Shown here one piece after another: positions 195-23,829 of a stretch of DNA of 32,116 bases (the stretch's first letter is position 1; each line of letters starts with the position of its first letter). The stretch covers positions 1-32,116 of the forward strand of contig JAGUZU010000132.1 of NCBI GenBank assembly GCA_020060625.1, in the 5' to 3' direction. Both the position numbers and the translations under genes were made by a program. Origin of the DNA: Anaerolineales bacterium (GTDB lineage Bacteria; Chloroflexota; Anaerolineae; Anaerolineales; Villigracilaceae). The notes beneath the pieces were generated by a model. That model made no database searches. It worked only from the letters and a program-made list of their open reading frames with translations, and was not told the origin of the DNA.

Positions 195-2588
195 TTATTC
201 GTACGCCAGCGTATCGCGCACTGTCAACCTCGATGCTCTTCGCGCAGGCAGGGCGCTTGCGAGCGTTCCCAGAACGATGGTGAAGATCAGCCAGGCGATG
301 ATGCCCGTCACGCCGTACACGGCGGGCATGGGCGCGGTTAGGATCGCCATGCCCACACCGAAGCATAAAATGTTCGTGATGGGAATCGAGATGAAGATGC
401 TGACCGCCCAACTCAGGATTCCGATCACCATGCCTTCGGTGACGACGATGGCTTGAATGTCGCCGTTGCTCGCGCCGATGGCGCGCATCACGCCGATCTC
501 GCGCGTGCGTTCCAGCACGTTGATGCTCATCGTGCCCATCAATCCCAGCCCGCCGACGATGGCGATCAGCGTTGCCATTACCAGCATGAAATAGACGAGG
601 ATGTCGGTCTGCGCCTTTTGATCGCGGATGAAGTCCGCGCCGAGCTGCGTGGAGCGGATGTTGATTCCGCGCGCCTCGAACGCCGCCTGAACCTGGTCGT
701 TGACCCGGCGCTGAGTCTCCGGGTCGTGCTGAGACGTGATGATGCGCAGGGAATACGCCATTTCCGGCTCGCCGACCAGCACGCTCAAATATTCATAGTT
801 GACGTATAACAGCGGCGGGCTGACGTTGCCCGTGATGCTGTAAATGCCCACGATGTGCCAGTCGGTTTCCTTGCCGTTCGCTTCGATGGTGATCCAGTCT
901 CCCACTTGTAAATCCGGGAAGATTTGCAGGAGGTGGTTGCCGATCACGATGGCGTTTTCATCGCCGGGCATCAACCAGCGCCCCGACGTGATGATGGGGT
1001 CTATCAGTTTCGAGGCGGCGGGAGGCGCGACGAACAGGATTTGCGTGCCTGTCTCGCTGCCGTCCATTTTGAGCGTGCCGGTGTATTCCAGCCAGCCTTC
1101 CGCGCCTTCCACGCCTTCGATGATTTCCGCGATGCCCGCGACCTTATCCAGGCGATAACCTCGGTCAAAGGCGATGTTGATGTCGGCAAGGAAGTATCCC
1201 TGAATATCTTCGATGACTTGATCGAAGGATGCCCACAAGTTGTAAACGGCGATGAAGACCGCGCCGCCCAGCACGAGCGTAAAAAGTGTCAGTCCCAGCC
1301 GCGCCTTGCGGCGGAATGTGTTTCTCAGGGAAATGCGGATCGGGCGCGGGATAAAGAGAGCGCTTTGCCGCACCGACTCGTCCTTTGGCTTTGCGTTCCC
1401 GCCCAAGCCGTAGTCGTTCAACGCCTCGCGGACGGTAATCTTCACACTGTTGTAGATCGGCAGGAGGGACGCCAATATCGGCACGACCAGCGCCACGAAC
1501 ACCTGTTGAATGTACGTCGAGGAATATCCGCGATACGGCACGGGGTAAAAGTTCAGCCACTGTGCCATTCCGCCGCCGATGTTCTCCGCGACCGCATTCG
1601 CAAGCGGGACTGCGATTAACAGCGCGCCGATCCCGAAACCGATGATCAGCACGAGGTACATGCCGAAGATCTGCATGGTTCCGCCGCCTGTGGCTTTCAT
1701 GATTCCGATCTGGCGTGTGTGCTGTGTCATCAAGGCGGTGATGGTGTTGACGATCAAAAATCCGCTCAACAAAACCGTGAGATACCCCAGCACGCCCAGC
1801 ACGAAGAACACGCCCTGTGTGATGCTGTATGCGAAGTGATGCCCCGGTTGGTACACGTTTACGAAATACACCGTCGCGCCAGCTCGTTCCATGCGATTCG
1901 CCACCGACTGCGCAACCGAAGTCACATGCTCCTGGTCGGTCTGCTTCTCGGAAACGCTGATCGCGAGCATGTCATAACTGGACGCATCGCCTCCCAGCCA
2001 TTCCAGCGTGTCGGGAGTCACGTACGCATTGACTTGCTGTGCAAGGTTATAGGGGAACCCTGTTACCGCGTGCATGTAACCGGCGAATTTGAGTTCGCGC
2101 CGTTTGCCGTTCCCAAGTTCCACCAGAATGATGTCGCCGGGCTGGTATCCAAGCGACATGGCGCTGGCGTCTATGATCGTTTCCTTGTTCCCGTAATGTG
2201 GAATGCTGATTTCGCCCGCGGCTGGTTTGAGAAAGTTCAACGTTAATTCGGCGGGGTCTTCCAGCGCGGTAAAGTTGATGTTCACATACGTCCCGTCCGG
2301 GCGCAGGATGCGCGCGCTTGTGGAGGAAAACCCTTCCACGGTGTCCACGCCCGGCACTTCGCGCGCCTGCTTCACCATGTCGTCGTTCAATGGCGCGGCG
2401 TACACTTCCGCTTCGGATGGATTCGCGGAAAGATAATCGCTGTCCATGCTTTCATTCATGTACAAGCCCAGGTTGCTGTTGAAACCCACCGCAAGCGCTC
2501 CAACGGCAATCGTGACGATGGTCAGGAGCGTCCGCCCGCGACTGCTCCAAAAATCTGCCCAGACCTTTTTCCAGCGGCTGGTCACCAT
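195..2588 (-). CDS. ABC transporter permease with two FtsX domains (MacB/LolE-like)
   Basis: This 797-residue protein is the membrane part of a type VII-like (MacB/LolCDE/FtsX family) ABC transporter. A first membrane helix lies at about residues 20-42, followed by an extracytoplasmic MacB-type domain and a first FtsX block near 265-395 ([19 protein letters not shown]). A second half repeats this plan: a helix near 430-455, a second extracytoplasmic domain and a second FtsX block near 670-790 ([18 protein letters not shown]). Such permeases use mechanotransmission to move lipoproteins, lipids or peptides rather than classical import. The ATG is preceded by a GGAGGGGAG motif and overlaps the ATPase stop codon by 7 bp, indicating translational coupling. 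Substrate unknown. In a presumably monoderm organism it could extract lipids or lipoproteins from the membrane, or export a compound. Confidence 0.9.
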
Positions 2589-12235: not shown

Positions 12236-12589
12236 ATGAATGAGTGGCTGTATGTAGCGTTGTTTATTGTTGTCGGTTTGATCATACCCATAGGCGCGAT
12301 TGCGGCAGGCTTTATTTTTGGACCCAAGAAGCCAAATCCCATTAAAGAAACTACATACGAATGCGGCATTGAAACGGTGGGGGATACGTGGGTGCAGTTC
12401 AAGGCGCAGTATTATATTTTCGCGTTGGTTTTCCTCGTTTTCGATGTGGAGGCGGTCTTCCTGTTCCCGTGGGCGGTCAAGATCGGTCAGTTGGGATTGT
12501 ATGCCGTGGTGGAAGGCATCATTTTCATCACCATCCTTATCGTCGGTTTGATGTACGCCTGGCGCAAGGGGATGTTGGAATGGGCGTAG
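12236..12589 (+). CDS. nuoA: NADH-quinone oxidoreductase subunit A
   Basis: NuoA is a three-helix subunit of complex I lying near the quinone channel and the joint with the hydrophilic arm. The 117-residue length is normal. The conserved first loop is present (KPNPIKETTYECGIETVGD, with the Cys of the switch loop) and so is the helix-2 motif FDVEAVFLFPWA. Helices lie at about 5-27, 57-80 and 86-108. GGAG lies 8 nt before the ATG. It is the first gene of the complex I block, but nuoB, nuoC and nuoD, which usually follow, are absent. A strong hairpin with a short T-rich tail stands between nuoA and nuoH. Confidence 0.96.
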   Translation: MNEWLYVALFIVVGLIIPIGAIAAGFIFGPKKPNPIKETTYECGIETVGDTWVQFKAQYYIFALVFLVFDVEAVFLFPWAVKIGQLGLYAVVEGIIFITILIVGLMYAWRKGMLEWA

Positions 12590-12605
12590 TTTCCCTGTAA
12601 ACAGG

Positions 12606-12645
12606 AGAGAAGGCTGATCGGATTTTCCTTTCAGCCTTCTCTTTG
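12606..12645 (+). terminator. Intrinsic terminator or attenuator between nuoA and nuoH
   Basis: Arms 12606-12617 (AGAGAAGGCTGA) and 12631-12642 pair perfectly over 12 bp around a 13-nt loop and are followed by TTGTGT. It lies 17 nt after the nuoA stop. Full termination would leave nuoH without an obvious promoter, so partial readthrough is likely and would make nuoA mRNA more abundant than the rest. Confidence 0.6.
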
Positions 12646-12714
12646 TGTAATGCCATATCGTCTGGATTGCGGGTGTTTCTTCCGCAGATTCCAGGCAAGG
12701 TTTAGGAGCGATTT

Positions 12715-13911
12715 ATGAATTTTTGGAATGACCCCTTAAAGATCGCCGCGGACTGGATGGAAGGTATTTTTGTCGGCTGGGGCATGGACGCCGTCCTCGC
12801 CCATGTGCTGGTGGCTTTCCTCGGCGTGTTCCTGCTCATCGCCATTTTGATGGTGGTGGACATTTTCCTCGTCTGGGTCGAGCGCAAAGTAGTGGCGCGT
12901 TTTCAAGACCGCCTTGGTCCGAATCGCCTGGGTCCGTTCGGGTTGATCCAGCCGTTCGCCGACATTATCAAGCTCATCATCAAGGAGGATACGACTCCCG
13001 GCGGCGCGGACAAGGTTGTTTACAACCTTGCCCCCATCCTCTCGATGATGTCCGTGTTGATTCTGTGGGCGGTGGTGCCGATTGCGCCTGTCATGCTTGG
13101 CGTGGATTTGAACGTGGGCGTGCTGTTCCTGATCGCCGCAGGAGCGATTGGCACGCTCTCCATTATTATGGCGGGCTGGTCGTCGAACAATAAGTTTGCA
13201 TTGATTGGCGGTTTCCGCCAGGTGGCGGTGATGGTGGCGTTCGAAGTGCCAATGCTTACCATGCTGTTGGTGCCGACTATTTTTGCAAGTTCGATGAACA
13301 TGAACGATATTATCCAGGGACAGGGGAATCTCTGGTATTTCGCGCTTTCGCCGCTTGGCGCATTGATCTTCCTGGTTGCTGCCATTGCGGAATTGGGACG
13401 CGCCCCCTTCGACCTTGCGGAAGGCGAGTCGGAACTGGTTTCCGGGTTCAACATCGAATATTCGGGCATGAAGTTCGGCATGTTCTACGCGGGCGAGCTT
13501 CTCCATGCGATGACCTTCGGCGGGATCTGGGCGATCCTGTTTTTTGGCGGCTATCGTTTCTTCGGCTTGGAGCAGGTCAGTCCCTTCCTGGCGATTCCGA
13601 TCTTCCTCTTCAAGGCGTTGATCGGCTACTGGATCATCATGTGGGTGAGGTACACCATGATGCGCATCCGCATCGACCAGATGCTGGTATTCAACTGGGT
13701 TTTCCTGACTCCGTTGTCCTTCGTTCTGCTGATGGTCACTGCCTTGATGAATGCGCTTTTGAAGGACGCTTCGCTTTGGATCTATGGACTGGGCATGTTC
13801 CTCTCGAATGTAGTGGTCGGGTGGATCGCGCTGGAGATCGCGCGTTCGGTCAGCCGCAAACAGCGCGAGAGTGTGGAAGGTCCGAAGAATCTGGCGGAGG
13901 CTCCGCACTGA
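12715..13911 (+). CDS. nuoH: NADH-quinone oxidoreductase subunit H
   Basis: NuoH forms much of the quinone-binding chamber and the first part of the proton path of complex I. Diagnostic segments are present: ERKVVARFQDRLGPNRLGPFGLIQPFADIIKLIIKED (split here by position, about residues 56-92), SSNNKFALIGGFR (about 156-168) and AELGRAPFDLAEGESELVSGFN (about 222-243), with the Glu-rich loop that faces the quinone. At 398 residues it is longer than the E. coli protein (about 325), with an extended N-terminus (about 30 residues) and a charged C-terminal tail. TTAGGAG precedes the ATG by 7 nt. It leads a tightly packed run nuoH-J-K-L-M-M-N, but nuoI, which normally follows nuoH, is missing. Confidence 0.96.
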   Translation: MNFWNDPLKIAADWMEGIFVGWGMDAVLAHVLVAFLGVFLLIAILMVVDIFLVWVERKVVARFQDRLGPNRLGPFGLIQPFADIIKLIIKEDTTPGGADKVVYNLAPILSMMSVLILWAVVPIAPVMLGVDLNVGVLFLIAAGAIGTLSIIMAGWSSNNKFALIGGFRQVAVMVAFEVPMLTMLLVPTIFASSMNMNDIIQGQGNLWYFALSPLGALIFLVAAIAELGRAPFDLAEGESELVSGFNIEYSGMKFGMFYAGELLHAMTFGGIWAILFFGGYRFFGLEQVSPFLAIPIFLFKALIGYWIIMWVRYTMMRIRIDQMLVFNWVFLTPLSFVLLMVTALMNALLKDASLWIYGLGMFLSNVVVGWIALEIARSVSRKQRESVEGPKNLAEAPH

Positions 13912-13926
13912 TCGGGAGGTACAAAT

Positions 13927-14436
13927 ATGACTGGTGAACAAATTATTTTCCTCATTACCGCCGGATTTACGCTCGGCTCCGGTTTCATGGTGGTGACGAC
14001 GCGCAACCTTGTCCACGCGGCGTTGTGGCTGGTGTCCACGCTGTTTGGCGTGGCGGTATTGTATGCGCTGATGAACGCGAACTTTATTGCCGTGGTGCAG
14101 GTCGTTGTGTATATCGGCGCAATTGCGATCCTTTTCATCTTTGCAGTGATGCTCACCCGCAAGGACTTGCGCGAGAATACCCCCCAAATCAACAAAAACT
14201 GGTGGGCAGGCGCGCTTTTGGCGGCGCTGGTCTTTGCCGGGCTGGTGTTCCTGCTTCAGGGTTGGAGCGGCTTCTCGAAGACAGGATCAGCCCTCCCGTC
14301 CGATTTTGATGCGGTTGGAATGTTGGGCGAGGCGCTGGTTTCGCCGAATGCCTATGTCCTGCCGTTTGAAGTGGCGTCCGTCCTCTTGCTGGCGGCGCTG
14401 GTGGGCGCGGTGTACGTCGCGTTCAACAAGAAATAG
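13927..14436 (+). CDS. nuoJ: NADH-quinone oxidoreductase subunit J
   Basis: NuoJ (169 residues) is a five-helix membrane subunit whose third helix carries the pi-bulge that switches during turnover. The conserved helix 2-3 region is visible (RNLVHAALWLVSTLFGVAVLYALMNANFIAVVQVVVYIGAIAILFIFAVML, within about residues 24-77), with Tyr in VVYIGA. TGGT-rich spacing of 15 nt separates it from nuoH, and GGGAGG lies about 6 nt before the ATG. It is followed by nuoK after 13 nt, the usual order. No abnormality is seen. Confidence 0.95.
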   Translation: MTGEQIIFLITAGFTLGSGFMVVTTRNLVHAALWLVSTLFGVAVLYALMNANFIAVVQVVVYIGAIAILFIFAVMLTRKDLRENTPQINKNWWAGALLAALVFAGLVFLLQGWSGFSKTGSALPSDFDAVGMLGEALVSPNAYVLPFEVASVLLLAALVGAVYVAFNKK

Positions 14437-14449
14437 GAGGCGCGCAGAT

Positions 14450-14758
14450 ATGGTTCCTCTTTCCTGGTATCTCATCCTTGCGGCGGCGTTATTTAGCGTC
14501 GGCTTGTTCGGCGCGCTGGTCCGCAGGAATGCGGTTGCAATTTTGCTGGGCGTTGAGTTGATGCTCAATGCCGTGAATATCAACCTGGTTGCCTTCTGGC
14601 GCTACGGCGATGTGACGACGATGACGGGGCAGGTCTTTGCCATCATCGTCTTTGCGGTCGCCGCAGCGGAGGTTGCCGTGGGTCTGGCTTTGGTCATCTC
14701 CGTGTACCGCCGCCGCAATACGGTGGTCGCCGATGAACTCGATATGATGAAGTGGTAG
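14450..14758 (+). CDS. nuoK: NADH-quinone oxidoreductase subunit K
   Basis: NuoK (102 residues) is a three-helix proton-channel subunit related to Mrp antiporter subunit C. Both key glutamates are present: Glu36 in GVELMLNAVN and the helix-3 Glu in AAAEVAVGLAL (Glu74). The start at 14450 is chosen because TAGGAGG ends 9 nt upstream and because MVPLSWYLILAAALFSVGLFG is the normal N-terminus. The frame stays open upstream, but that stretch is the nuoJ gene read out of frame. The stop is 6 nt before the nuoL start, indicating coupled translation in the order J-K-L. Confidence 0.96.
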   Translation: MVPLSWYLILAAALFSVGLFGALVRRNAVAILLGVELMLNAVNINLVAFWRYGDVTTMTGQVFAIIVFAVAAAEVAVGLALVISVYRRRNTVVADELDMMKW

Positions 14759-14764
14759 GGAATT

Positions 14765-16909
14765 ATGACGACTGAATTACTGATCTGGCTAATCCCCCTT
14801 CCGCCTGTACTGGCTTTTTTCCTGATCGTGCTGTTCACGAACAAGAACAAGGCGCTCAGCCATACGGTGGGCGTGGGCGCGGCATTCCTCTCGTGGCTCG
14901 CCGCGATGATCGTCTTTTTCCGCGCGCTCGGCGTGGAACACCTTGGCGAGCATCCGTTTGAGTCCGCGATCAACTGGCTGCCGACGGGCAATACCTGGCT
15001 GAAGATCGGCGTGCTGGTCGATCCGATTGGAGCGGCGGTGCTGTTTTTCGTCGCATGGACGATTTTTATGATCTTCCTGTACAGCGTGGGCTATCAAAAC
15101 TATGGTCAACCCGAAGGCGACCATGACCGCGCGGGTTTGCCGCCGCACGGTGCAACCGTTCATGGACACACCGTCCCGTCGGTTGAGCCGATGTACTCGC
15201 GCTTCTTTGCCTTCCTCGGCTTGTTCGCCTTCGGCATGTACGTGCTGGTACTCTCGGACAACCTGCTGACCATGTTCGTCGGTTGGGAGATCATGGGCTT
15301 GTGTTCCTACCTGTTGATTGGCTTTTGGTACGGAAAGCCCTCGGCGCGCAACGCCGCCGTCAAAGCCTTCATGACCACCCGCGTCGGCGACGTGTTCATG
15401 CTGTTGGGTATTGCTTTCCTCTACAGCGTGACGGGGACGCTCTCCTTCCGCGAGATTTTCACCGAGACGATTTTGCACACTCTCGCCTCCGTTCCAACGG
15501 GCGTGTTTGGTCTGTCTGCCGCAGGCTTGATCGCCGTCCTGCTCTTTGTCGGCACTATCGGCAAATCCGCGCAGTGGCCCCTGCACGTCTGGTTGCCCGA
15601 CGCGATGGAAGGTCCGACCCCCGTCAGCGCGATGATCCATGCGGCGACGATGGTGTCCGCGGGCGTGTATGCGGTCATCCGCATGTTCCCGCTGCTCACG
15701 GCTGGATACGAAGGTCACGGCTTGACGCCCGAAATGACGGTGGTCGCCTTCATCGGCACGTTTACCGCCATCTTCGCCGCGACGATTGCCGTCGCCCAAA
15801 ACGACATCAAGCGCGTGCTGGCGTACTCGACCATCTCCCAACTCGGCTTCATGATCGCCGCGCTTGGCATCGGCGCGTACGTTGCTGCCGCGTTCCACCT
15901 GATTACGCACGCTTTCTTCAAAGCGCTGCTCTTCCTCGGCTCCGGATCGGTCATTCACGGCATGGAGCATGGCGTCCTGCACACGGGTAATCATGATGTT
16001 GACCCGCAGGATATGTTCAATATGGGCGGGCTTCGCAAGAAGATGCCCATCACGTTCTGGACTTTTCTCATCGGCGGTTTTGCCCTCTCCGGCTTCCCAT
16101 TGGTGACGGCTGGCTTCTGGTCAAAGGATGAAATTCTCGCGGATGCGTGGGCGCACGGACATACGGCGGTCTTCATCACTCTGGCAGTTGCCGCCTTCCT
16201 GACCGCCTTCTATACCATGCGCCAAGTCACGCTGACATTCCTCGGCGAACCCCGCACGAAAGAAGCGGAACACGCCCAGGAGACTCCCTGGACGATGACC
16301 GTCCCGCTGATGGTTCTGGCGTTCTTCGCTGTGACGTATGGCTGGGTTGGCATTCCCGAACATTTCCCCGGCATTGGCGGACTCGTCCCCAACTGGTTCC
16401 ATGATTTCGTCGGTCACACGCTGGCGGAAGTCCCCGCCGCGCCTGAGTTCAGTTGGGTCCCCTTGCTGACCTCGCTCGTCGTTGCGCTTGGCGGATTGAC
16501 GGCTGGCTATTTTGCCTATCGCAATGTCAAAGCGCCTGCGGAAGACAAACTGCAAATCCCCATCCTCAAGAATAAGTGGTACTTCGACGAACTTTATGAT
16601 TTTCTTTTCGTCAAACCCGCCGCATGGTTCTCTGAGGTCTTCGTCTCAAAATGGATGGATCAAGGCTTGATTGACGGCATCCTCCACTTGTTTGGACCAA
16701 CCACAGGCGGAATCGGAGGCGCGATTCGCAACTACTTCGATGTGCCTGTCATCAATCGCTTCTTCGGCGATGGTTCCGCCAACGCCACCTGGTGGGTCGG
16801 CAAGAATCTCCGCCCCATCCAGACGGGGCGCATCCAGCAGTACCTCATCCTTTCGCTGTTCGTCCTGATCGTTGTGGGCGGACTGCTCTATTTCTTCTTA
16901 CTGGCATAG
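14765..16909 (+). CDS. nuoL: NADH-quinone oxidoreductase subunit L (extended)
   Basis: NuoL is the distal antiporter-like proton pump of complex I, with a long C-terminal amphipathic helix lying along the arm. Core residues are present: Glu175 (FVGWEIMGL), Lys267 (GTIGKSAQ), His292 in helix 8 and Lys454 (GFWSKDEI). At 714 residues it exceeds the E. coli protein (613). Two regions look inserted. One is a His-rich loop at about 114-140, between helices 3 and 4. The other is about 28 extra residues at about 645-675 in the lateral helix region, between GLIDG and IQTGRIQQY. The second matches what I recall for complexes with an additional NuoM-like subunit, and here two nuoM genes follow. TAGGGA precedes the ATG. 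Confidence 0.95.
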   Translation: MTTELLIWLIPLPPVLAFFLIVLFTNKNKALSHTVGVGAAFLSWLAAMIVFFRALGVEHLGEHPFESAINWLPTGNTWLKIGVLVDPIGAAVLFFVAWTIFMIFLYSVGYQNYGQPEGDHDRAGLPPHGATVHGHTVPSVEPMYSRFFAFLGLFAFGMYVLVLSDNLLTMFVGWEIMGLCSYLLIGFWYGKPSARNAAVKAFMTTRVGDVFMLLGIAFLYSVTGTLSFREIFTETILHTLASVPTGVFGLSAAGLIAVLLFVGTIGKSAQWPLHVWLPDAMEGPTPVSAMIHAATMVSAGVYAVIRMFPLLTAGYEGHGLTPEMTVVAFIGTFTAIFAATIAVAQNDIKRVLAYSTISQLGFMIAALGIGAYVAAAFHLITHAFFKALLFLGSGSVIHGMEHGVLHTGNHDVDPQDMFNMGGLRKKMPITFWTFLIGGFALSGFPLVTAGFWSKDEILADAWAHGHTAVFITLAVAAFLTAFYTMRQVTLTFLGEPRTKEAEHAQETPWTMTVPLMVLAFFAVTYGWVGIPEHFPGIGGLVPNWFHDFVGHTLAEVPAAPEFSWVPLLTSLVVALGGLTAGYFAYRNVKAPAEDKLQIPILKNKWYFDELYDFLFVKPAAWFSEVFVSKWMDQGLIDGILHLFGPTTGGIGGAIRNYFDVPVINRFFGDGSANATWWVGKNLRPIQTGRIQQYLILSLFVLIVVGGLLYFFLLA

Positions 16910-16918
16910 GAGCAAACG

Positions 16919-18442
16919 ATGGAATTTCTCAATACTCATCTCCTTAGCCTGATCCTGTTCCTGCCGACCATTGCGGCATTGATCATGCTCTTCCTGCCGG
17001 GCGGCGAGACGAAACTCCTGCGCTGGTTCGCATTTGCCGCCAGCCTGATTCCCTTCGTCCTCACGCTCGTGGCGTGGACAAACTTCGATCCGAACGCGGC
17101 GGGCTTCCAATTCGAGGAAAAATACGTCTGGTACGAAGCCATCAACTCATCCTTCCATGTTGGCGTGGATGGGATTTCACTTTCGATGGTTTTACTTACC
17201 ACCCTGCTGACGCCTCTTGCGATTTTGGCATCCTTCAGTATCACCGACCGCGTCAAGCCGTACATGATGCTGTTCCTGTTTCTCGAAACAGGCATGCTCG
17301 GCGTCTTCATGTCGCTCGACCTGCTGATTTTCTTCGTGTTTTGGGAAGTCGGTCTCGTCCCGATGTATTTCCTCATCAATCAGTGGGGCAGCGCCAATCG
17401 GGATTACGCTTCGCTCAAGTTCATGATCTACACCATGGGCGGGTCGCTCGGTCTGCTGCTGGCTGTGCAGATGCTCGGCGTTCTCTTCGGGACCTATGAC
17501 CTGCTTGCCCTTTATGAGCGTTGGAATTCGCTGACAGCGGATTCCGTTCTCCTCGGCATGTCGGTTCATACTGTGAAGACGATTGCTTTCTGGGCGTTTG
17601 TGATCGCGTTCGCGGTCAAAGTTCCGTTGTGGCCCTTTCACACCTGGCTGCCTGATGCGCATACCGAAGCGCCCACGGCTGGCTCGATGATCCTGGCAGG
17701 CGTCCTCTTGAAACTCGGCGCGTACGGTTTTATCCGCCTTGTGCTTCCGCTCTATCCGCTCGAAGCGAAGATATTCGCAGGCGCGCTGGCGTTCCTCGCG
17801 GTTGCCGCGATCGTCTTCGGCGCGTTCGGCTCCTTCGGTCAAACGGACTTCAAGCGGCTGGTCGCGTACTCGTCTGTGAACCACATGGGCTTTGTCGTTC
17901 TCGGCATCGCCGCTGCAGGACTTGCTGCCGGAACAGAAGATGCCCACATCGCCATGAGCGGCGCGGTCTTGCAGATGTTCAATCACGGTTTGTCGGCGGC
18001 GGGAATGTTCTTCCTCGTCGGCGTCATCTACGAACGCACGCATACCCGCAACCTGAACGACTTCGGCGGCTTGTTCCCGCTCGTGCCAATTTATGGCGGC
18101 ATCATGATCTTCACGAGCATGGCGTCGCTGGGGCTGCCCGGGCTCAATGGCTTTGTCTCCGAATTTATGGTGGTGCGAGGCGCGTACCCCGTGCTGACGA
18201 TCTACACTGTCATTGCCATGCTTGGTCTGCTGTTCACGGGCGCATACATCCTCAAGGGAATCAAAAGCGTTCTGCACGGACCCATGAACGAACACTGGGC
18301 GCGCGGCGAACACAAACTTACCGAGATCAACACGCGCGAACTTTTCGTCATTGTTCCGCTCATGGGACTGATGCTCGTCATCGGCATCTGGCCCGCGTGG
18401 ATTTTGGAAATCATCAACAAAGCCGTTACGGCTCTGTTCTAA
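16919..18442 (+). CDS. nuoM: NADH-quinone oxidoreductase subunit M, canonical copy
   Basis: NuoM is the middle antiporter-like proton pump. The 507-residue protein has all the ionisable residues expected for pumping: Glu143 in WEVGLVPMYF (helix 5), Lys234 in FAVKVPLWPFHTWLPDAH (helix 7), Lys265 in GVLLKLGAYG (helix 8) and Glu415 in GFVSEFM (helix 12). TAGGAGC precedes the ATG and the gene lies 9 nt after nuoL. It is followed 7 nt later by a second, divergent NuoM, so the arm probably has an extra antiporter-like module. The helix-breaking motif PDAHTEAPT is normal. Confidence 0.95.
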   Translation: MEFLNTHLLSLILFLPTIAALIMLFLPGGETKLLRWFAFAASLIPFVLTLVAWTNFDPNAAGFQFEEKYVWYEAINSSFHVGVDGISLSMVLLTTLLTPLAILASFSITDRVKPYMMLFLFLETGMLGVFMSLDLLIFFVFWEVGLVPMYFLINQWGSANRDYASLKFMIYTMGGSLGLLLAVQMLGVLFGTYDLLALYERWNSLTADSVLLGMSVHTVKTIAFWAFVIAFAVKVPLWPFHTWLPDAHTEAPTAGSMILAGVLLKLGAYGFIRLVLPLYPLEAKIFAGALAFLAVAAIVFGAFGSFGQTDFKRLVAYSSVNHMGFVVLGIAAAGLAAGTEDAHIAMSGAVLQMFNHGLSAAGMFFLVGVIYERTHTRNLNDFGGLFPLVPIYGGIMIFTSMASLGLPGLNGFVSEFMVVRGAYPVLTIYTVIAMLGLLFTGAYILKGIKSVLHGPMNEHWARGEHKLTEINTRELFVIVPLMGLMLVIGIWPAWILEIINKAVTALF

Positions 18443-18449
18443 GAGGTGG

Positions 18450-19967
18450 ATGATGAATTTTCCCATCCTAAGTATTATCACGTTCCTTCCCTTTGTCGCG
18501 GGGGCCATCATCCTGCTGATGCCTGCGGAACGGAAGAATGAAACCCGCGCCGTTGCGCTTGCCGCGGCGACGCTCGACCTTCTGCTTTCCGGCTGGGTCT
18601 ATCTTCAATATCTCACACAAGGGTTGGCTGGCTACCAGTTCCTCGAACAATATAACTGGCTGCCCCAGCTTGGCATCACCCTCTCCTTCGGCGTGGACGG
18701 CATGAGCGCCCCGCTCGTCCTGCTGACGGGCATTGTCATGTTCACAGGTGTGCTTATCTCCTGGGGTGACGACGACAAGCACGTCATGGCGGGTATTCAG
18801 GACCGTCCGCGCGAATTCTTCGCCTTCCTGTTTTTGCTGGCGGGCGGCGTGTTCGGCGTTTTTGTCTCGCTCGACCTGTTCATGCTGTTCTTCTTCTATG
18901 AGATCGCCGTCTTCCCGATGTACCTGCTCATCGCTATTTGGGGCTGGGTGAAGACCCGCGAATACGCGGCGATGAAACTGACCCTGTACCTGTTTATCGG
19001 TTCGGTGGTTGCCCTTGTTGGCGCTCTCGCCATGTACTGGACGCAATACCAAAACACAGGCGTACTTTCCTTCGACATGCTTCGATTGGAAAACGCAGGT
19101 TTCTCTGTGGCTTTCCAAAATATTTGGTTTCTGCCGGTCTTCCTTGGCTTTGCAGTGCTGGGCGGCATCTGGCCCTTCCATAATTGGTCGCCGGATGGTC
19201 ACGTTGCCGCGCCGACAGCCGTTTCCATGTTCCATGCGGGCGTGCTGATGAAACTCGGCGCGTTCGCTGCCTTGCGGGTGGGCGTGATGCTCCTGCCTGA
19301 AGGCGCAAAGACCTGGTCTCCGCTCATCATGGGCTTTGCGGCAATTGCGGTGGTGTACGGCGCGTACATTGCCTTTGTCCAGACCGACCTGAAATACATG
19401 ATCGGTTTCTCGTCCGTGTCGCACATGGGGCTGGTGATGCTCGGCATCTCCACTCTCAACCAGACCGGTCTGACCGGCGCCGGCGTACAAATGTTCTCGC
19501 ACGGCGTGATGACGGCTCTCTTCTTTGCCGTCACCGGCATGATCTATGACCGCGCTCATACCCGCATGATTCCCGAACTTGGCGGCATGGCAAAGATTAT
19601 GCCCTTTGCCGCCATTGGCTTCATCATCGGCGGTCTGGTTTCGATGGGCATGCCCCTTTTCTCCGGCTTTGTCGCGGAATTCCCGATCTTCATGGGGGTC
19701 TGGCGTGAGCAGTGGTTGGTGGCGGTTATCGCCAGCATTTCCATCGTCATTACCGCGGCGTACATCATGATGAATATCCGTAAAGTCTTTTTCTCCCCAA
19801 TGCCTGAAAATCTCGAAGGTCACGTCGGTGATATCACCGTGTTGGACAAGGTCGCCATCGTCACGCTCTGTCTGTTTATGATCGGCATCGGTTGGTTCCC
19901 CGCCTTGATGGTGCCGATGGTCGAGACAGGCGTTGAAAATATCATGCGCTTGTTGGGAGGTGCATAA
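18450..19967 (+). CDS. nuoM: Second NADH-quinone oxidoreductase subunit M (NuoM2), lacking the TM7 lysine
   Basis: This 505-residue protein is a clear NuoM homologue but not a recent duplicate of its neighbour. It keeps Glu151 (FFFYEIAVFPMYL), the helix-8 Lys268 (GVLMKLGAF) and helix-12 Glu410 (GFVAEF). At the helix-7 position, where the first copy has VKVPLWPFH, it reads VLGGIWPFH, so the lysine central to the proton path is Leu237 and no other Lys lies in residues 201-267. It also has SPDGH in place of LPDAH and a His (262) in helix 8, as in NuoL. It may be an altered pump, a structural spacer or a subunit for another use. GAGGTGG lies before ATG-ATG; the second ATG is possible. Its stop overlaps the nuoN start (TAATG). 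Confidence 0.93.
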   Translation: MMNFPILSIITFLPFVAGAIILLMPAERKNETRAVALAAATLDLLLSGWVYLQYLTQGLAGYQFLEQYNWLPQLGITLSFGVDGMSAPLVLLTGIVMFTGVLISWGDDDKHVMAGIQDRPREFFAFLFLLAGGVFGVFVSLDLFMLFFFYEIAVFPMYLLIAIWGWVKTREYAAMKLTLYLFIGSVVALVGALAMYWTQYQNTGVLSFDMLRLENAGFSVAFQNIWFLPVFLGFAVLGGIWPFHNWSPDGHVAAPTAVSMFHAGVLMKLGAFAALRVGVMLLPEGAKTWSPLIMGFAAIAVVYGAYIAFVQTDLKYMIGFSSVSHMGLVMLGISTLNQTGLTGAGVQMFSHGVMTALFFAVTGMIYDRAHTRMIPELGGMAKIMPFAAIGFIIGGLVSMGMPLFSGFVAEFPIFMGVWREQWLVAVIASISIVITAAYIMMNIRKVFFSPMPENLEGHVGDITVLDKVAIVTLCLFMIGIGWFPALMVPMVETGVENIMRLLGGA

Positions 19968-21418
19968 TGTATACACCCCAAACCTTCGCCTCCATTCTTC
20001 CCGAAATCCTGATTCTAACCATCGGAATCCTGATTCTCATCTTTGAGCCGTTCTGGAAGGAAGAAAAACGCCGAAATGCGGGCTGGCTTACAGCGGGTGG
20101 TCTTTTCATTGCGATGACCGTCAGCCTGCTCTTTGCCCGTCCGGGCGAGCCGACCAGCATGTTGGGCGGCATGATTCGCTTCGACTGGCTGGGCTTCTTC
20201 TTCAAGATGCTGTTTATGTTTGCGGGGGCGGCGACAGCGCTCCTTTTGATGGACCATGAACGAGCGGGGAAACGAGGCGAAGCCTATCTCCTGCTCCTCG
20301 CTTCGCTTCTCGGCATGAACCTGATGGCTGTTTCGTCCAATCTCGTCATGCTCTACCTTGCGATTGAAACCGCGTCCATCCCGCTGTACATCCTTGCCGG
20401 CTTCCTGCTTGACGACGAACGCTCGACGGAAGCGGGTTTCAAGTACCTGTTGTTTGGCGCAGTATCCTCGACCATTATGTTGTACGGCTTCAGTCTGCTC
20501 TTTGGTTTTTCAGGCACCACCGACCTGCACGAAATCGCGGCGATGTTTACAACCGGCAGCATCTCTCCTGTGGTCGGTTTTGGCGTATTAATTCTTTTGA
20601 TGGTGGGACTTGGCTTCAAGGTTTCCATTGTGCCGTTCCACTTCTGGGCGCCTGATGTGTATCAGGGCGCGCCCACGCCTGTGGCGGGATTCCTTTCCAC
20701 CGCTTCGAAAGCCGCCGGGTTTGCTGTTGTGGTGCGCCTGTTCTTTGCCGCCCTCCCCGATTTCGCTCCCACATGGACACTGGTGTTTGCGGCGCTGTCG
20801 GCGATCACCATGACGGTGGGGAACCTGCTGGCGCTTCCGCAAACCAACATCAAACGACTGCTGGCGTATTCCTCGATCTCCCATGCAGGTTATGCCTTGA
20901 TCGGTGTGGTGGCGTTCAGTCAACTTGGCGCGGCGAGCGTGGTCTTTTACCTTGCGGCATACATCTTCACGAACCTGCTCGCCTTCGGTATCGTGATGGC
21001 GTTCAGCCGCATCACGGGGCTGGAAGAGATCACGGACTATGCGGGTTTGAGCCGCCGAAACCCGTTTATGGCGTTGATGATGCTTGCCGCCTTCCTGTCG
21101 CTGGCGGGGATGCCGCCGTTTGGCGGTTTTGTGGCGAAGATCTTTGTCTTTGCGGCGGGCGTGCAGGCGAATTACATCTGGCTGGTCGTTGTAGGCATCA
21201 TCAACTCGATCATCGGCGTGTATTATTACCTCAATGCGATGAAATATGTGTATCTTTACCGAATGCCGAATGAAGACGAAGAACAACACCCCGTCCCGTT
21301 GACCCGTCCATACGCGCTGGCGCTTGTCGTGTTGGTGATTGGTGTGATTCTGGTCGGCACGATCTTCGCTCCCTGGTTCGGTTGGTCCGATTCTGGCGCG
21401 CTCATTCTCTTCAATTGA
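19967..21418 (+). CDS. nuoN: NADH-quinone oxidoreductase subunit N
   Basis: NuoN (483 residues) is the antiporter-like subunit closest to the hydrophilic arm side. The expected residues are seen: Glu in YLAIETASIPLYIL (helix 5), Lys in GLGFKVSIVPFHFWAPDVYQGAPTP (helix 7), Lys in STASKAAGF (helix 8) and Lys in GGFVAKIFVF (helix 12). It starts within the NuoM2 stop codon (TAATG, one shared base) with GGGAGG 7 nt upstream. It is the last complex I gene here. Its stop codon is overlapped by the -35 element of the promoter for the ATP synthase genes, so the two operons directly adjoin. Confidence 0.96.
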   Translation: MYTPQTFASILPEILILTIGILILIFEPFWKEEKRRNAGWLTAGGLFIAMTVSLLFARPGEPTSMLGGMIRFDWLGFFFKMLFMFAGAATALLLMDHERAGKRGEAYLLLLASLLGMNLMAVSSNLVMLYLAIETASIPLYILAGFLLDDERSTEAGFKYLLFGAVSSTIMLYGFSLLFGFSGTTDLHEIAAMFTTGSISPVVGFGVLILLMVGLGFKVSIVPFHFWAPDVYQGAPTPVAGFLSTASKAAGFAVVVRLFFAALPDFAPTWTLVFAALSAITMTVGNLLALPQTNIKRLLAYSSISHAGYALIGVVAFSQLGAASVVFYLAAYIFTNLLAFGIVMAFSRITGLEEITDYAGLSRRNPFMALMMLAAFLSLAGMPPFGGFVAKIFVFAAGVQANYIWLVVVGIINSIIGVYYYLNAMKYVYLYRMPNEDEEQHPVPLTRPYALALVVLVIGVILVGTIFAPWFGWSDSGALILFN

Positions 21419-21451: not shown

Positions 21452-21751
21452 ATGAACCGCCAGGATGAAAAACAAAAGAAGGAAAAATCGCAGAGCGCGT
21501 TGAATTTGGCGCTGGCGGCTGTCGCCGGACAGGTTGGTTTCGTCACTCTGGGCATTATTGCAGTTGCCCTGATTGGCGGGCTGGCTTTGGATAACCAATT
21601 CGGAACCAAGCCGATGTTCACCATCCTGTTGATGATCGCGAGCGTGCCGGTGACGGTCGTTCTTATGTTTCGTATCGTGCGCGCCGCCACCAGCCAGATC
21701 AAACCGTCTGTAAATTCAGAGACTACTACGGAGGAAAACAATCGTGAGTGA
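21452..21751 (+). CDS. AtpZ/AtpI-family protein, first gene of the Fo operon
   Basis: This 99-residue protein has a charged N-terminus (about 1-14, rich in Lys, Gln and Glu) and two hydrophobic segments (about 24-48 and 55-74). In the second half of the first helix it reads GGLALDNQFGTKP, matching the family pattern G-x-x-L-D-x-x-x-x-(T/S) of AtpZ/AtpI proteins, which assist c-ring assembly or Mg transport at the head of ATP synthase operons. It begins about 3 nt after the predicted transcription start with no Shine-Dalgarno. Its end overlaps the GTG start of atpB by 8 bp, so atpB translation may depend on it. The C-terminal tail is hydrophilic and acidic. Confidence 0.8.
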   Translation: MNRQDEKQKKEKSQSALNLALAAVAGQVGFVTLGIIAVALIGGLALDNQFGTKPMFTILLMIASVPVTVVLMFRIVRAATSQIKPSVNSETTTEENNRE

Positions 21752-22790
21752 AAATGTTCAAGGCGGATGGCGTTTCGGCACTGCCCGTTGGATTGTGCTT
21801 GCCGCCATAATTTTGGGCTTGTTTCTTTTTACCGGCTTTTTTGGCGTCGGTCTGGGAATCAAGCCGATTATGCCGGAAGTATTTCTACCCGGCGAAAAAC
21901 TGAGCGAGGAACCGCTCTTCATCATCCCTTTTGTGGGTCCGTTTTACTATACCAACACCATGACTGGTCTGCTTTTGGCTGACCTTGTCGTCCTTTTGAT
22001 CGCTTTCGGCGTTTCGCGCGCGGTCAAAAGCGGGAAAATGGCGCTTTCCGGCATGTCCGGCGCTGTGGAAGCCCTGCTTGAAGCCTTGTACGGCATTACC
22101 GAAGGGACGGCGGGGAAATGGACAAAACCCATTTTTTCCTGGTTCGCCGCCATCACCCTGCTCGTGCTGGCGTCCAACTGGCTTGGGTTGATTCCCGGCG
22201 CGGAGACAATCGGTCTTATCCATGAAGGACATGGCGATTATGCGGTAAAAGACCTCTTTTCGATTGGATCGCTGAAGGTGCAGACGATCTGGGATGAAAC
22301 AGACGCTGCGCACGAAGGCGAAGTGGCCGCGGAAGGCGAGCATCATGGCGCGGCTGTAATTCCCTTCCATCGTCCGGTTTCCACCGACCTGAATTTCACG
22401 TTTGCTCTTGCGATTGTCGCAGTGGTCATGATCCAGGTCTTTGGCTTTCGCTCGCAGGGTATGGCGTACCTGACGAAATTCTGGAATACCAAGACCTTGT
22501 TCAGCAAGCCGATTTTCGGCGTGATCGACTTTGGCGTAGGCTTGTTGGAGTTGGTCTCCGAATTCTCGAAGATACTTTCCTTTGCCTTCCGTCTATTTGG
22601 TAATATGTTTGCGGGCGCGGTGCTTTTGTTCGTGATCGGGTCGCTTGTTCCTGTTTTTGCCCAGTCCATGTTCTACCTGCTTGAGTTCTTTGTCGGGCTT
22701 ATCCAGGCGGTTGTGTTCGGTATGCTTACCATGGTGTTCATGTCCCAGGCTACACAGGGACACGGTGAACAGCACGATGAGGCGCATTAA
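21744..22790 (+). CDS. atpB: ATP synthase Fo subunit a
   Basis: Subunit a provides the two half-channels and the essential arginine for proton movement past the c-ring. The catalytic helix reads SFAFRLFGNMFAGAVLL with Arg283, and the last helix (about 310-335) carries QAVVFGMLTMVFMSQA. At 348 residues it is longer than the E. coli protein (271). The extra length is mainly a hydrophilic loop at about 155-212 rich in His, Glu and Asp, after the NWLGLIPG helix end. The start is GTG at 21744, with GGAGG about 9 nt upstream, inside the end of the preceding gene. The C-terminal tail (HGEQHDEAH) is also His/acid rich. Confidence 0.95.
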   Translation: MSENVQGGWRFGTARWIVLAAIILGLFLFTGFFGVGLGIKPIMPEVFLPGEKLSEEPLFIIPFVGPFYYTNTMTGLLLADLVVLLIAFGVSRAVKSGKMALSGMSGAVEALLEALYGITEGTAGKWTKPIFSWFAAITLLVLASNWLGLIPGAETIGLIHEGHGDYAVKDLFSIGSLKVQTIWDETDAAHEGEVAAEGEHHGAAVIPFHRPVSTDLNFTFALAIVAVVMIQVFGFRSQGMAYLTKFWNTKTLFSKPIFGVIDFGVGLLELVSEFSKILSFAFRLFGNMFAGAVLLFVIGSLVPVFAQSMFYLLEFFVGLIQAVVFGMLTMVFMSQATQGHGEQHDEAH

Positions 22791-22800
22791 TAATAATATT

Positions 22801-22822
22801 CGGGCAGGATGAACATCGCCCG
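22801..22822 (+). promoter_or_regulatory. Hairpin in the atpB-atpE spacer
   Basis: CGGGC (22801-22805) and GCCCG (22818-22822) can pair, with a short GAT/ATC stem inside. It lies 10 nt after the atpB stop and well before the strong ACGGAGGA Shine-Dalgarno of atpE. Such hairpins often mark mRNA processing that raises c-subunit output; the stem is short, so this is tentative. Confidence 0.35.
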
Positions 22823-22869
22823 GTTATTTCTTAAACTTTTGAATTCTACTTACGGAGGATTTTTCTAAA

Positions 22870-23097
22870 ATGGAAGCAGCAGCTGCAAAATTGATTGGCG
22901 CGGGTCTGGCAATGATCGGAGCGATTGGCGCGGGCGCCGGTATTGGCATCGTGACCGGTGGCGCCGTCCAGGCTATGGCGCGTAACCCCGAAATGACCGG
23001 TACGATCCAGACAAATATGATTCTCGGAATCGCGTTCGCGGAAGCCGTCGCGATCTACTGTCTGGTGGTCTCCCTGCTTATTTTGTTCGTATTCTAG
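22870..23097 (+). CDS. atpE: ATP synthase Fo subunit c
   Basis: This 75-residue helical hairpin forms the rotor ring. It has the Gly-rich helix 1 (GAIGAGAGIGIVTGGAVQ), the polar loop ARNPEM (Arg38, Asn39, Pro40) contacting gamma and epsilon, and the ion-binding Glu58 in GIAFAEAVAIYCLVV. Residue 59 is Ala, where sodium-type rings have Ser or Thr, so a proton ring is more likely. It is preceded by a long spacer (79 bp) and a full ACGGAGGA motif 10 nt before the ATG, suiting the high output needed for a multi-copy subunit. The next gene starts 12 nt after its stop. Confidence 0.97.
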   Translation: MEAAAAKLIGAGLAMIGAIGAGAGIGIVTGGAVQAMARNPEMTGTIQTNMILGIAFAEAVAIYCLVVSLLILFVF

Positions 23098-23109
23098 TCG
23101 GAGGCTCCC

Positions 23110-23829
23110 TTGGAAGCATTAGGTCTCAACCTCCCGTTTTTACTTGTCCAGATCGTCAACCTGATCATCGTATATACGGTGGTCGCAAAATGGATTGTCG
23201 GTCCCATCGTCGGCTTGCTTGAAAAACGCCGCGAAAAGATCGCACAAGGCATGGAAGACGCCCGCGTTGCGGCGGAAGCCCGCGCCAACGCCGAGAAGGA
23301 AGCCGCCAGGATCATTGCCGATGCCCAGGCGGAAGCCAGTAAAGTTGTCCGCGAGGCTACAGAGCGCGCCGAATCCGCCGGCAAGGATGTGAAAGCCGCC
23401 GCTGATGCAGAAGCCGCAAAAGCCCGCGACGCTGCGCTTGCCGAGGCAGAACTTGAACGCAACCGAATCCTCGGCGACCTGCGCGGACAGGTTGCCGCTC
23501 TTGCGATGGCTGCCGCCAACAAACTGGTCGGCGAGGCGCTCGATGAGAAGAAACAGCGCGCTTTGATCGATGAGTTCTTCTCCGGCGTGAAGGCTGGCAA
23601 GGTGATCGTCGTTGACGGCGATTTCAAGGGCGATGCCGCCGAAGTGACCAGCGCGCTCCCGCTTACCAGCGAAGAGCAGGAAGCCGTGAAAAAGACCGTC
23701 TCTGCGAAGGACTTTTCCTTCAAGGTGAATCCCTCCATTCTTGGCGGCTTGGTCATCAAAGTCGGCGACAAGGTGCTAGATGGTTCCGTTGCCGGAAAAC
23801 TCGAAGGTTTGCGCCAGACACTGAAATAA
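23110..23829 (+). CDS. atpF: ATP synthase b subunit fused to the delta C-terminal domain
   Basis: The 239-residue protein starts as a normal b subunit: a membrane helix at about 9-28, then a long charged coiled coil (about 38-158) with the late b motif LAMAAANKLVGEALDEKKQR. From about 165 it continues as the C-terminal part of delta/OSCP: VTSALPLTSEEQ and then ILGGLVIKVGDKVLDGSVAGKLEGL in two adjoining parts (209-233), matching the E. coli AtpH end (GDMVIDGSVRGRLERL). The six-helix N-terminal delta domain that binds alpha is absent. The start is TTG at 23110 with CGGAGG 6 nt upstream. It is the last gene of this operon; a strong terminator follows, and no alpha, gamma, beta or epsilon gene is present. 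Confidence 0.9.
   Translation: MEALGLNLPFLLVQIVNLIIVYTVVAKWIVGPIVGLLEKRREKIAQGMEDARVAAEARANAEKEAARIIADAQAEASKVVREATERAESAGKDVKAAADAEAAKARDAALAEAELERNRILGDLRGQVAALAMAAANKLVGEALDEKKQRALIDEFFSGVKAGKVIVVDGDFKGDAAEVTSALPLTSEEQEAVKKTVSAKDFSFKVNPSILGGLVIKVGDKVLDGSVAGKLEGLRQTLK

What the first reader, a model, noticed from the sequence alone, without database searches (positions are those of the whole stretch)
14765..19967. Possible enlarged (2M-type) complex I: two NuoM genes with a longer NuoL lateral helix region
Two different NuoM proteins are encoded between nuoL and nuoN. NuoL has about 28 extra residues (about 645-675) in the lateral helix region. As I recall, complexes with two NuoM subunits have been described with just such an extension, to span the extra antiporter-like subunit. 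The two signs support each other and predict a longer arm and perhaps a changed proton-to-electron ratio.
Basis: partly seen in the sequence, partly recalled or inferred. Interest (0 to 1): 0.7.

Follow-up and report, generated by a model that had tools for sequence, protein, structure and literature searches.

The report
Four-pump complex I with odd NuoM2
The window encodes the membrane arm of a known, enlarged form of the respiratory enzyme complex I with an extra pump-like subunit; that extra subunit lacks a lysine thought to matter for pumping and looks borrowed from another complex I, so the assumed gain of one more pumped proton is not safe.

Summary
In detail: nuoL, nuoM1, nuoM2 and nuoN lie in a row, and NuoL has about 28-30 extra residues in its lateral helix. 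It is an ordinary member of the published "2M" complex I of Chloroflexota, with nuoB, fused nuoCD and nuoI on another contig. (1) The helix extension is not specific: 67 of 67 two-NuoM loci have it, but so do 30 of 105 single-NuoM loci, including the second, 14-gene complex I of the same genome. It looks like a repeated 26-27-residue helix unit. (2) A higher proton-to-electron ratio is not supported: NuoM2 lacks the TM7 lysine (E. coli NuoM K234) of the Glu-Lys ion pair in 98 of 98 distinct NuoM2, against 99 of 99 NuoM1 that have it. NuoM2 does not group with NuoM1; it belongs to a clade of lysine-less NuoM that includes the only NuoM of 21 single-NuoM complexes. 2M complexes therefore look like hybrids, probably made at least twice. 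Whether NuoM2 pumps is open. The paper that named 2M complexes (Chadwick 2018) was not held, so I cannot say whether it reported the missing lysine.

The parts
12236..12589 (+). nuoA
   Evidence: NCBIfam NuoA models, best E 8e-43, under the models' own cut-offs
12715..13911 (+). nuoH
   Evidence: NCBIfam NuoH models, best E 1e-87, under the models' own cut-offs
13927..14436 (+). nuoJ
   Evidence: NCBIfam NuoJ models, best E 3e-33, under the models' own cut-offs
14450..14758 (+). nuoK (102 aa)
   Evidence: NCBIfam NuoK above cut-off, scanned without its first two residues; start read
14765..16909 (+). nuoL with long lateral helix
   Evidence: NCBIfam NuoL above cut-off; E144, D178, K229, K342, K399, D400 (E. 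coli numbers) all kept
16577..16819 (+). predicted single lateral helix of NuoL, residues 605-685
   Evidence: AlphaFold2 secondary structure, moderate to low confidence there
16658..16819 (+). two successive D-x-x-hydrophobic-I-(D/N) units of the lateral helix, D632 and D659, 27 residues apart; most short NuoLs have one
   Evidence: motif positions; repeat signal in 43 of 97 long helices but not in the window's own (p 0.16)
16919..18442 (+). nuoM1, ordinary NuoM with TM7 Lys234 (17618-17620)
   Evidence: TIGR01972 527 bits; residues; trees
18450..19967 (+). nuoM2, lysine-less NuoM
   Evidence: TIGR01972 440 bits; in one clade with the other TM7-lysine-less NuoM of the set, 100/100
19158..19160 (+). 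codon CTG for Leu237 of NuoM2 at the place of E. coli NuoM K234
19967..21418 (+). nuoN
   Evidence: TIGR01770 above cut-off; E133, K217, K247, K395 kept

Best explanation
The window encodes the membrane arm (A, H, J, K, L, M1, M2, N) of a 2M-type complex I whose connecting genes (nuoB, fused nuoCD, nuoI) lie on another contig. No nuoE, F or G was found in the window or in the 12 kb read around nuoBCDI, so its electron donor is not settled. Shown by sequence: four antiporter-like subunits in one tight gene run; a NuoL lateral helix longer by about one helix unit; a NuoM2 from a separate NuoM lineage without the TM7 lysine. Inferred: the four subunits assemble in one arm in the order L-M1-M2-N, the lengthened helix braces them, and NuoM2 was recruited from a single-NuoM complex I rather than made by duplication of NuoM1. 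Inferred and least certain: because NuoM2 keeps TM5 Glu, TM8 Lys and TM12 Glu but has no Lys partner for the TM5 Glu, it works mainly as an ungated relay that lengthens the arm between NuoN and NuoM1, rather than as a full extra pump.
For: Gene run and family calls. No B, C, D, E, F, G or I frame in the window. nuoB-nuoCD(fused)-nuoI at G000:C21, followed by an ApbC-type Fe-S carrier; the same split and fusion are described for cultured Chloroflexi 2M complexes (PMC7117926 passage). Long helix in 67 of 67 2M loci. TM7 Lys: 0 of 98 NuoM2, 99 of 99 NuoM1; NuoL and NuoN ion-pair and central lysines kept in the 97 of 99 selected loci that were read (two rows left out; two gaps at NuoN K395). 4 of 98 NuoM2 also lack the TM8 lysine. 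Careful tree: the 24 lysine-less NuoM of 55 rows are one side of a branch, 100/100; holding NuoM1 and NuoM2 of Chloroflexota and Acidobacteriota together costs 181 log-likelihood units, p-AU 3e-88. 21 single-NuoM, short-helix loci have only a lysine-less NuoM. E. coli NuoM K234, K265 and E144 are called essential, and HycC has Leu at the K234 place (PMC5061711 passages, citing others).
Against: NuoN K217A, the matching TM7 lysine in NuoN, kept proton pumping (109% in proteoliposomes, 68% in membranes) (PMC13073174 passages), so loss of this lysine need not stop pumping. Lysine-less NuoM is the only NuoM at 21 loci, so it seems to serve in whole complexes. Assembly of NuoM2 into the arm and the order L-M1-M2-N are not tested here. 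Many 2M loci were found by searching with a NuoM2, which could miss 2M clusters with a lysine-bearing NuoM2; the 16 2M loci found through NuoL (15 with a readable NuoM2) show the same loss. The NuoN tree does not follow neatly: Nitrospira 2M NuoN lies near lysine-less Acidobacteriota loci (88) and L078 and L120 do not join the 2M NuoN. The AU test used a group chosen after seeing a tree. The window's own helix repeat is not significant alone (p 0.16). Chadwick 2018 could not be read.
Confidence: 0.6

Rival explanations
1. Full extra pump: NuoM2 translocates a fifth proton per two electrons using TM8 Lys and TM12 Glu, as proposed in the literature for 2M complexes.
For: Published proposal (passages of PMC7117926, PMC6606698 and PMC8004040). 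TM8 Lys kept in 94 of 98 distinct NuoM2; TM12 Glu and TM5 Glu kept in 39 of 39 of the first set. NuoN K217A still pumps (PMC13073174 passages).
Against: TM7 Lys absent in 98 of 98 NuoM2; 4 of 98 also lack TM8 Lys; no conserved M2-specific lysine or arginine replaces it near TM7.
Confidence: 0.3
2. NuoM2 is a plain tandem duplicate of NuoM1 that diverged quickly.
For: The genes are adjacent and both are NuoM by family models.
Against: NuoM2 groups with lysine-less sole NuoMs of other complexes, 100/100; forcing NuoM1 and NuoM2 together is rejected. Long branches could still distort the tree.
Confidence: 0.07
3. The long lateral helix is an older, independent trait that marks nothing about pump number; NuoM2 was added to complexes that already had it.
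For: 30 of 105 single-NuoM loci have it. Two single-NuoM long-helix loci (L078 and L120) lie with the Chloroflexota and Acidobacteriota 2M clade in the NuoL tree and the NuoM1 tree. At least 9 changes between long and short on the quick NuoL tree. G004 and G012 hold only one L, one M and one N plus a distant homologue.
Against: 0 of 67 2M loci have a short helix, so the two traits are linked; L078 and L120 do not join the 2M loci in the NuoN tree; single-NuoM long-helix lineages could instead have lost NuoM2, as G035 appears to have done.
Confidence: 0.5
4. NuoM2 is not part of this complex I but serves elsewhere (for example with the 14-gene complex or alone).
For: The same genome has a second complex I with a long-helix NuoL and one NuoM.
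Against: NuoM2 sits between M1 and N with 7 bases before it and a 1-base overlap after it. The 14-gene type keeps the long helix in G004 and G012, where the NuoM2 search gave nothing better than the ordinary NuoM (E 4e-85 and 1e-85) and PF00361 gave only L, M, N and a distant homologue.
Confidence: 0.05

Closest known systems
2M complex I (Chadwick et al. 2018; seen only through citing papers)
   Same: Second NuoM between NuoM1 and NuoN, lengthened NuoL; in Chloroflexi nuoBCDI apart with fused nuoCD (PMC7117926 passage), as here
   Different: No difference in layout found. Added here: NuoM2 lacks the TM7 lysine and groups with the NuoM of some single-NuoM complexes, and the NuoL extension is not specific; I could not check whether Chadwick 2018 already says any of this
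Five-pump Complex_I_3 of Ca. Manganitrophaceae (PMC9040806 passages)
   Same: Two NuoM and a 26-residue lateral helix insert; four Nitrospirota-group loci here that look like it (L247-L250) also pair an EKKE with an EIKE NuoM
   Different: NuoL replaced by two MrpD-like subunits
HycC of E. coli formate hydrogenlyase (PMC5061711 passages)
   Same: Antiporter-like subunit with Leu at the place of NuoM K234
   Different: Different complex and family; NuoM2 is a NuoM by TIGR01972
Ordinary 14-gene complex I, as in the same genome at contig C4
   Same: Same L-M-N core, and here even the long NuoL helix
   Different: One NuoM, with nuoE, F and G in the operon

Membership tests
2M complex I | Two NuoM genes in the nuo cluster | tested here: met
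2M complex I | Lengthened lateral helix in NuoL | tested here: met
   86 against 53-58 residues between anchors; not specific to 2M
2M complex I (Chloroflexi form) | nuoL-M1-M2-N order, nuoBCDI apart, nuoCD fused | tested here: met
   feature list from a PMC7117926 passage
2M complex I | Four antiporter-like subunits assembled in one arm | not testable with these tools
   no multimer prediction or biochemistry available
2M complex I | More protons per electron pair | not testable with these tools
   weakened by the missing TM7 lysine
Ordinary proton-pumping NuoM (for NuoM2) | TM5 Glu, TM7 Lys, TM8 Lys, TM12 Glu | tested here: not met
   TM7 Lys is Leu237; the other three are kept
Mrp or hydrogenase-4 antiporter subunit (for NuoM2) | Best family model from those families | tested here: not met
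   TIGR01972 440 bits against 158 (Mrp) and 144 (hydrogenase 4)

The most novel reading that the evidence does not exclude
There is a separate family of lysine-less NuoM that cannot gate like other antiporter subunits. It serves alone in single-NuoM complexes and was fitted at least twice, each time as the second of two NuoMs, into lysine-bearing complexes. 2M complexes are then hybrids with a relay or spacer module, not five-proton pumps, and the lateral helix grows in units of about 26 residues that need not match the number of pumps.
Probability: 0.4. Interest if true: 0.75.

Novelty: new member of a known kind. Interest (0 to 1): 0.5.

Why it matters
The 2M complex has been taken as evolution's way to pump one more proton. 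If its extra subunit regularly lacks the ion-pair lysine, those energy budgets need measuring, not assuming. The natural lysine-less NuoMs also give a ready test of how far the Glu-Lys pair is needed for pumping, and the single-NuoM complexes with a long lateral helix test what that helix is for.

Tried and rejected
Rejected: NuoM2 as an Mrp or hydrogenase subunit; NuoM2 as a local duplicate; the long NuoL helix as a specific 2M sign.

Led nowhere: Chadwick 2018 (not held). Quick NuoL trees: one joined E. coli with the cut G025 locus L051; in the other, L247 and L249 stood on very long branches and are probably MrpD-like rather than NuoL, and they were left out of the residue counts. Unlinked NuoM: of the 13 long-helix single-NuoM genomes reached through named loci, 11 have a second NuoM place and 2 have one; I opened the second place in 4 of the 11 (L153-L156) and each had its own NuoL and NuoN. 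The other 7 were not opened, so an unlinked NuoM in those is not excluded. L150 and L151 (genomes of short-helix loci L127 and L123) proved to be further long-helix single-NuoM loci; L152 held no NuoM.

Rows dropped: L104 (NuoL cut off), L062 (copy of L034), L157 (copy of L094), E. coli L066 (table only), L243 (no NuoL), L152; loci with neither a NuoN nor two NuoMs were not counted. L067's NuoM2 was too short for the residue set. L051 (77 residues, cut NuoL) is counted as long; four 2M loci (L247-L250) have another residue at the first anchor. Counts are after removing identical cores and include E. coli NuoM. The sample is not random: 12 of the 30 long single-NuoM loci are of the window's genus, 59 of the 172 loci were picked by hand from the tables from that, and 30 of the NuoM2 loci are the best matches of one Nitrospira query.

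Print: the lysine was looked for (15 listed of 64,117; 12 listed of 13; 2 papers); no listed paper, by title and start of abstract, joins 2M complexes with the missing lysine. In five of the six papers the words lysine and Lys do not occur; the sixth, PMC3150298, was not searched for them.
Full report
WHAT IS THERE. Eight nuo genes, A H J K L M1 M2 N, lie on the + strand from 12236 to 21418. nuoL ends 9 bases before M1, M1 7 bases before M2, and M2 overlaps nuoN by one base. ATP synthase genes follow. No frame like NuoB, C, D, E, F, G or I was found in the window. nuoB, a fused nuoCD (open frame 660 aa) and nuoI sit on contig C21, followed by an ApbC-type Fe-S carrier. A second, complete 14-gene nuo operon with one NuoM lies on contig C4. 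NuoF-like matches in the genome are three, all under the family's cut-off: one in C4 and two on C103 and C46 beside NuoG-like frames. NuoE and NuoG were not searched for in the whole genome. So the electron donor of the window's complex is not settled. The nearest named relative of its NuoL is from an Anaerolineae MAG (L067, 76% identity).

KNOWN OR NEW. I read passages of papers that describe the same thing: PMC7117926 gives nuoLM1M2N with nuoBCDI apart and nuoCD fused for cultured Chloroflexi, citing Chadwick et al. 2018; PMC8004040 and PMC3150298 report a second nuoM in Chloroflexus; PMC6606698 and PMC12342949 in Nitrospira; PMC9040806 in Manganitrophaceae, where it also says that the insert occurs in other NuoLs of the same genomes. 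Chadwick 2018 itself was not held. The window is a new member of that kind.

THE NUOL EXTENSION. I measured residues from NuoL D608 to Y693 (window numbering). The values are bimodal: 53-58, or 77 and 82-87; the window has 86, E. coli 53. Over 172 loci with a readable run from L to N (or L-M-M), 67 of 67 two-NuoM loci are long, and 30 of 105 single-NuoM loci are long too. 107 of the 172 come from the first set (counted), 59 were picked by hand from the tables, and 6. Among the 30 are 12 loci of the window's genus (the C4 type), others of its order, and loci titled or classed as Poribacteria, Zixibacteria, Ignavibacteria, Bacteroidetes, Neomarinimicrobiota and Acidobacteria. G004 and G012 (96 and 97% complete) show PF00361 only in one L, one M, one N and a distant homologue of about 466 aa, yet have the long helix. 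G035 (97% complete) belongs to the 2M lineage by NuoL, NuoM1 and NuoN trees but has no NuoM2 at that place or among its PF00361 hits, and still has the long helix. The fewest changes on the quick NuoL tree are 9 for helix length and 4 for NuoM number. So the extension goes with 2M but does not prove it. For 7 of 13 named long-helix single-NuoM genomes an unlinked second NuoM place exists that I did not open.

WHAT THE EXTENSION IS. With a motif pattern written after seeing the sequences, 43 of 52 short helices show exactly one D-x-x-hydrophobic-hydrophobic-(D/N-like) motif and 45 of 70 long ones show two or more, the second mostly 26-29 residues on; 3 of 52 short ones also show two. A self-comparison against shuffles, free of that pattern, gives p of 0.05 or less in 43 of 97 long helices, mostly at lags 26 and 27, and in 3 of 91 short ones; the window alone gives lag 27 with p 0.16. 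The simplest reading is a repeated helix unit. AlphaFold2 predicts one helix over the whole stretch in the window (605-685) and in a single-NuoM long-helix NuoL (581-655 of L117, low confidence). The overall fold of the window model matches solved NuoL chains.

NUOM2 LACKS THE TM7 LYSINE. Aligned to E. coli NuoM, the window's NuoM2 has Leu where K234 is; E144, K265 and E407 are kept. In the first set, 39 of 39 NuoM2 lack it, and 40 of 40 NuoM1, 46 of 46 short-helix and 29 of 29 long-helix single NuoM have it. After adding more loci and removing identical cores: NuoM1 99 of 99 with K; NuoM2 0 of 98 with K (62 L, 34 I, 1 M, 1 T); single NuoM 93 K and 21 L. Four of the 98 NuoM2 lack the TM8 lysine as well. 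NuoM2 also has Gly for P236 in 36 of 39; no conserved M2-specific lysine or arginine appears near TM7. In the 97 of 99 selected loci read, the ion-pair, central and distal lysines of NuoL and NuoN are kept, apart from two gaps at NuoN K395. Because most later loci were found with a NuoM2 query, a 2M cluster with a lysine-bearing NuoM2 could have been missed; the 16 2M loci found through NuoL include 15 with a readable NuoM2, all without the lysine.

WHERE NUOM2 COMES FROM. 21 single-NuoM loci, 13 from the Chloroflexota search and 8 from the Acidobacteriota search, all with a short helix, have only a lysine-less NuoM. I opened seven of these clusters further: six have A, B, C, D, H, I, J, K, L, M, N without E, F or G inside the cluster, though one of them (L268) has G- and F-like frames about 3 kb beyond nuoA; the seventh (L273) is cut by its contig end and showed D, H and J-N only. 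G674, G820 and G785 have a lysine-bearing single-NuoM complex as well. In the NuoM trees the lysine-less NuoM form one clade: support 100 in the quick tree of 133 rows (51 rows), 100/100 in the careful tree of 55 rows (24 rows). Holding NuoM1 and NuoM2 of Chloroflexota and Acidobacteriota together is rejected (181 log units, p-AU 3e-88; the group was chosen after seeing a tree). NuoL and NuoM1 of Nitrospira 2M lie among ordinary complexes, those of Chloroflexota and Acidobacteriota elsewhere, while both NuoM2 sets are in the lysine-less clade. The careful tree needs two changes for NuoM2 (one change in 2% of bootstraps), which two recruitments would leave, but starred branches alone force only one. 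The NuoN tree is less tidy: NuoN of Chloroflexota and Acidobacteriota 2M form one group with G035 (97), but Nitrospira 2M NuoN lies in an unresolved group with lysine-less Acidobacteriota loci and one Zixibacteria locus (88), and L078 and L120 sit with other long-helix loci.

HOW IT MOST LIKELY WORKS. In current models each antiporter subunit has a Lys-Glu ion pair whose opening passes the signal along the arm (passages of PMC9271201 and PMC13324432). With the TM5 Glu unpaired, NuoM2 could pass charge without gating. PMC5061711 (passages) calls NuoM K234 essential and notes Leu in HycC. Against this, NuoN K217A still pumped (PMC13073174 passages). I therefore hold the structural part (four subunits, one arm, hybrid origin) as likely and the absence of a full fifth proton as only somewhat more likely than not.

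LIMITS. No assembly or stoichiometry was tested. MAG contigs may miss unlinked genes.

Noticed in passing
L147:3825-5225 (G000 contig C40), also L148 and L149: A 466-aa orphan antiporter-like protein (PF00361, 49 bits in G000) without a TM7 lysine by eye; similar weak hits in G004, G011, G012, G035 and G036.
   Followed up: partly
window 21744-23829: ATP synthase a, a c-like small protein (22870-23097, by eye) and a fused b-delta subunit (PF00430 plus PF00213 in 239 aa) directly downstream of nuoN.
   Followed up: no
L247-L250: Nitrospirota-group loci with a 300-440 aa NuoL-like frame before a 660-aa one with an 82-residue helix, then two NuoM and NuoN; they resemble the five-pump Complex_I_3 of Manganitrophaceae, and their second NuoM also lacks the TM7 lysine.
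   Followed up: partly
window 15101-15190 (NuoL about residues 113-142): A second NuoL insert of about 25 residues in a loop, shared by the other Chloroflexota 2M-lineage NuoLs of A1 (L049, L032 and, in part, L026) and predicted with low confidence.
   Followed up: no
L061:3067-4140: An ApbC-type Fe-S carrier gene directly after nuoI of the separate nuoBCDI cluster.
   Followed up: no
L210, L211, L073, L213: NuoM2 proteins lacking the TM8 lysine as well as the TM7 lysine.
   Followed up: partly
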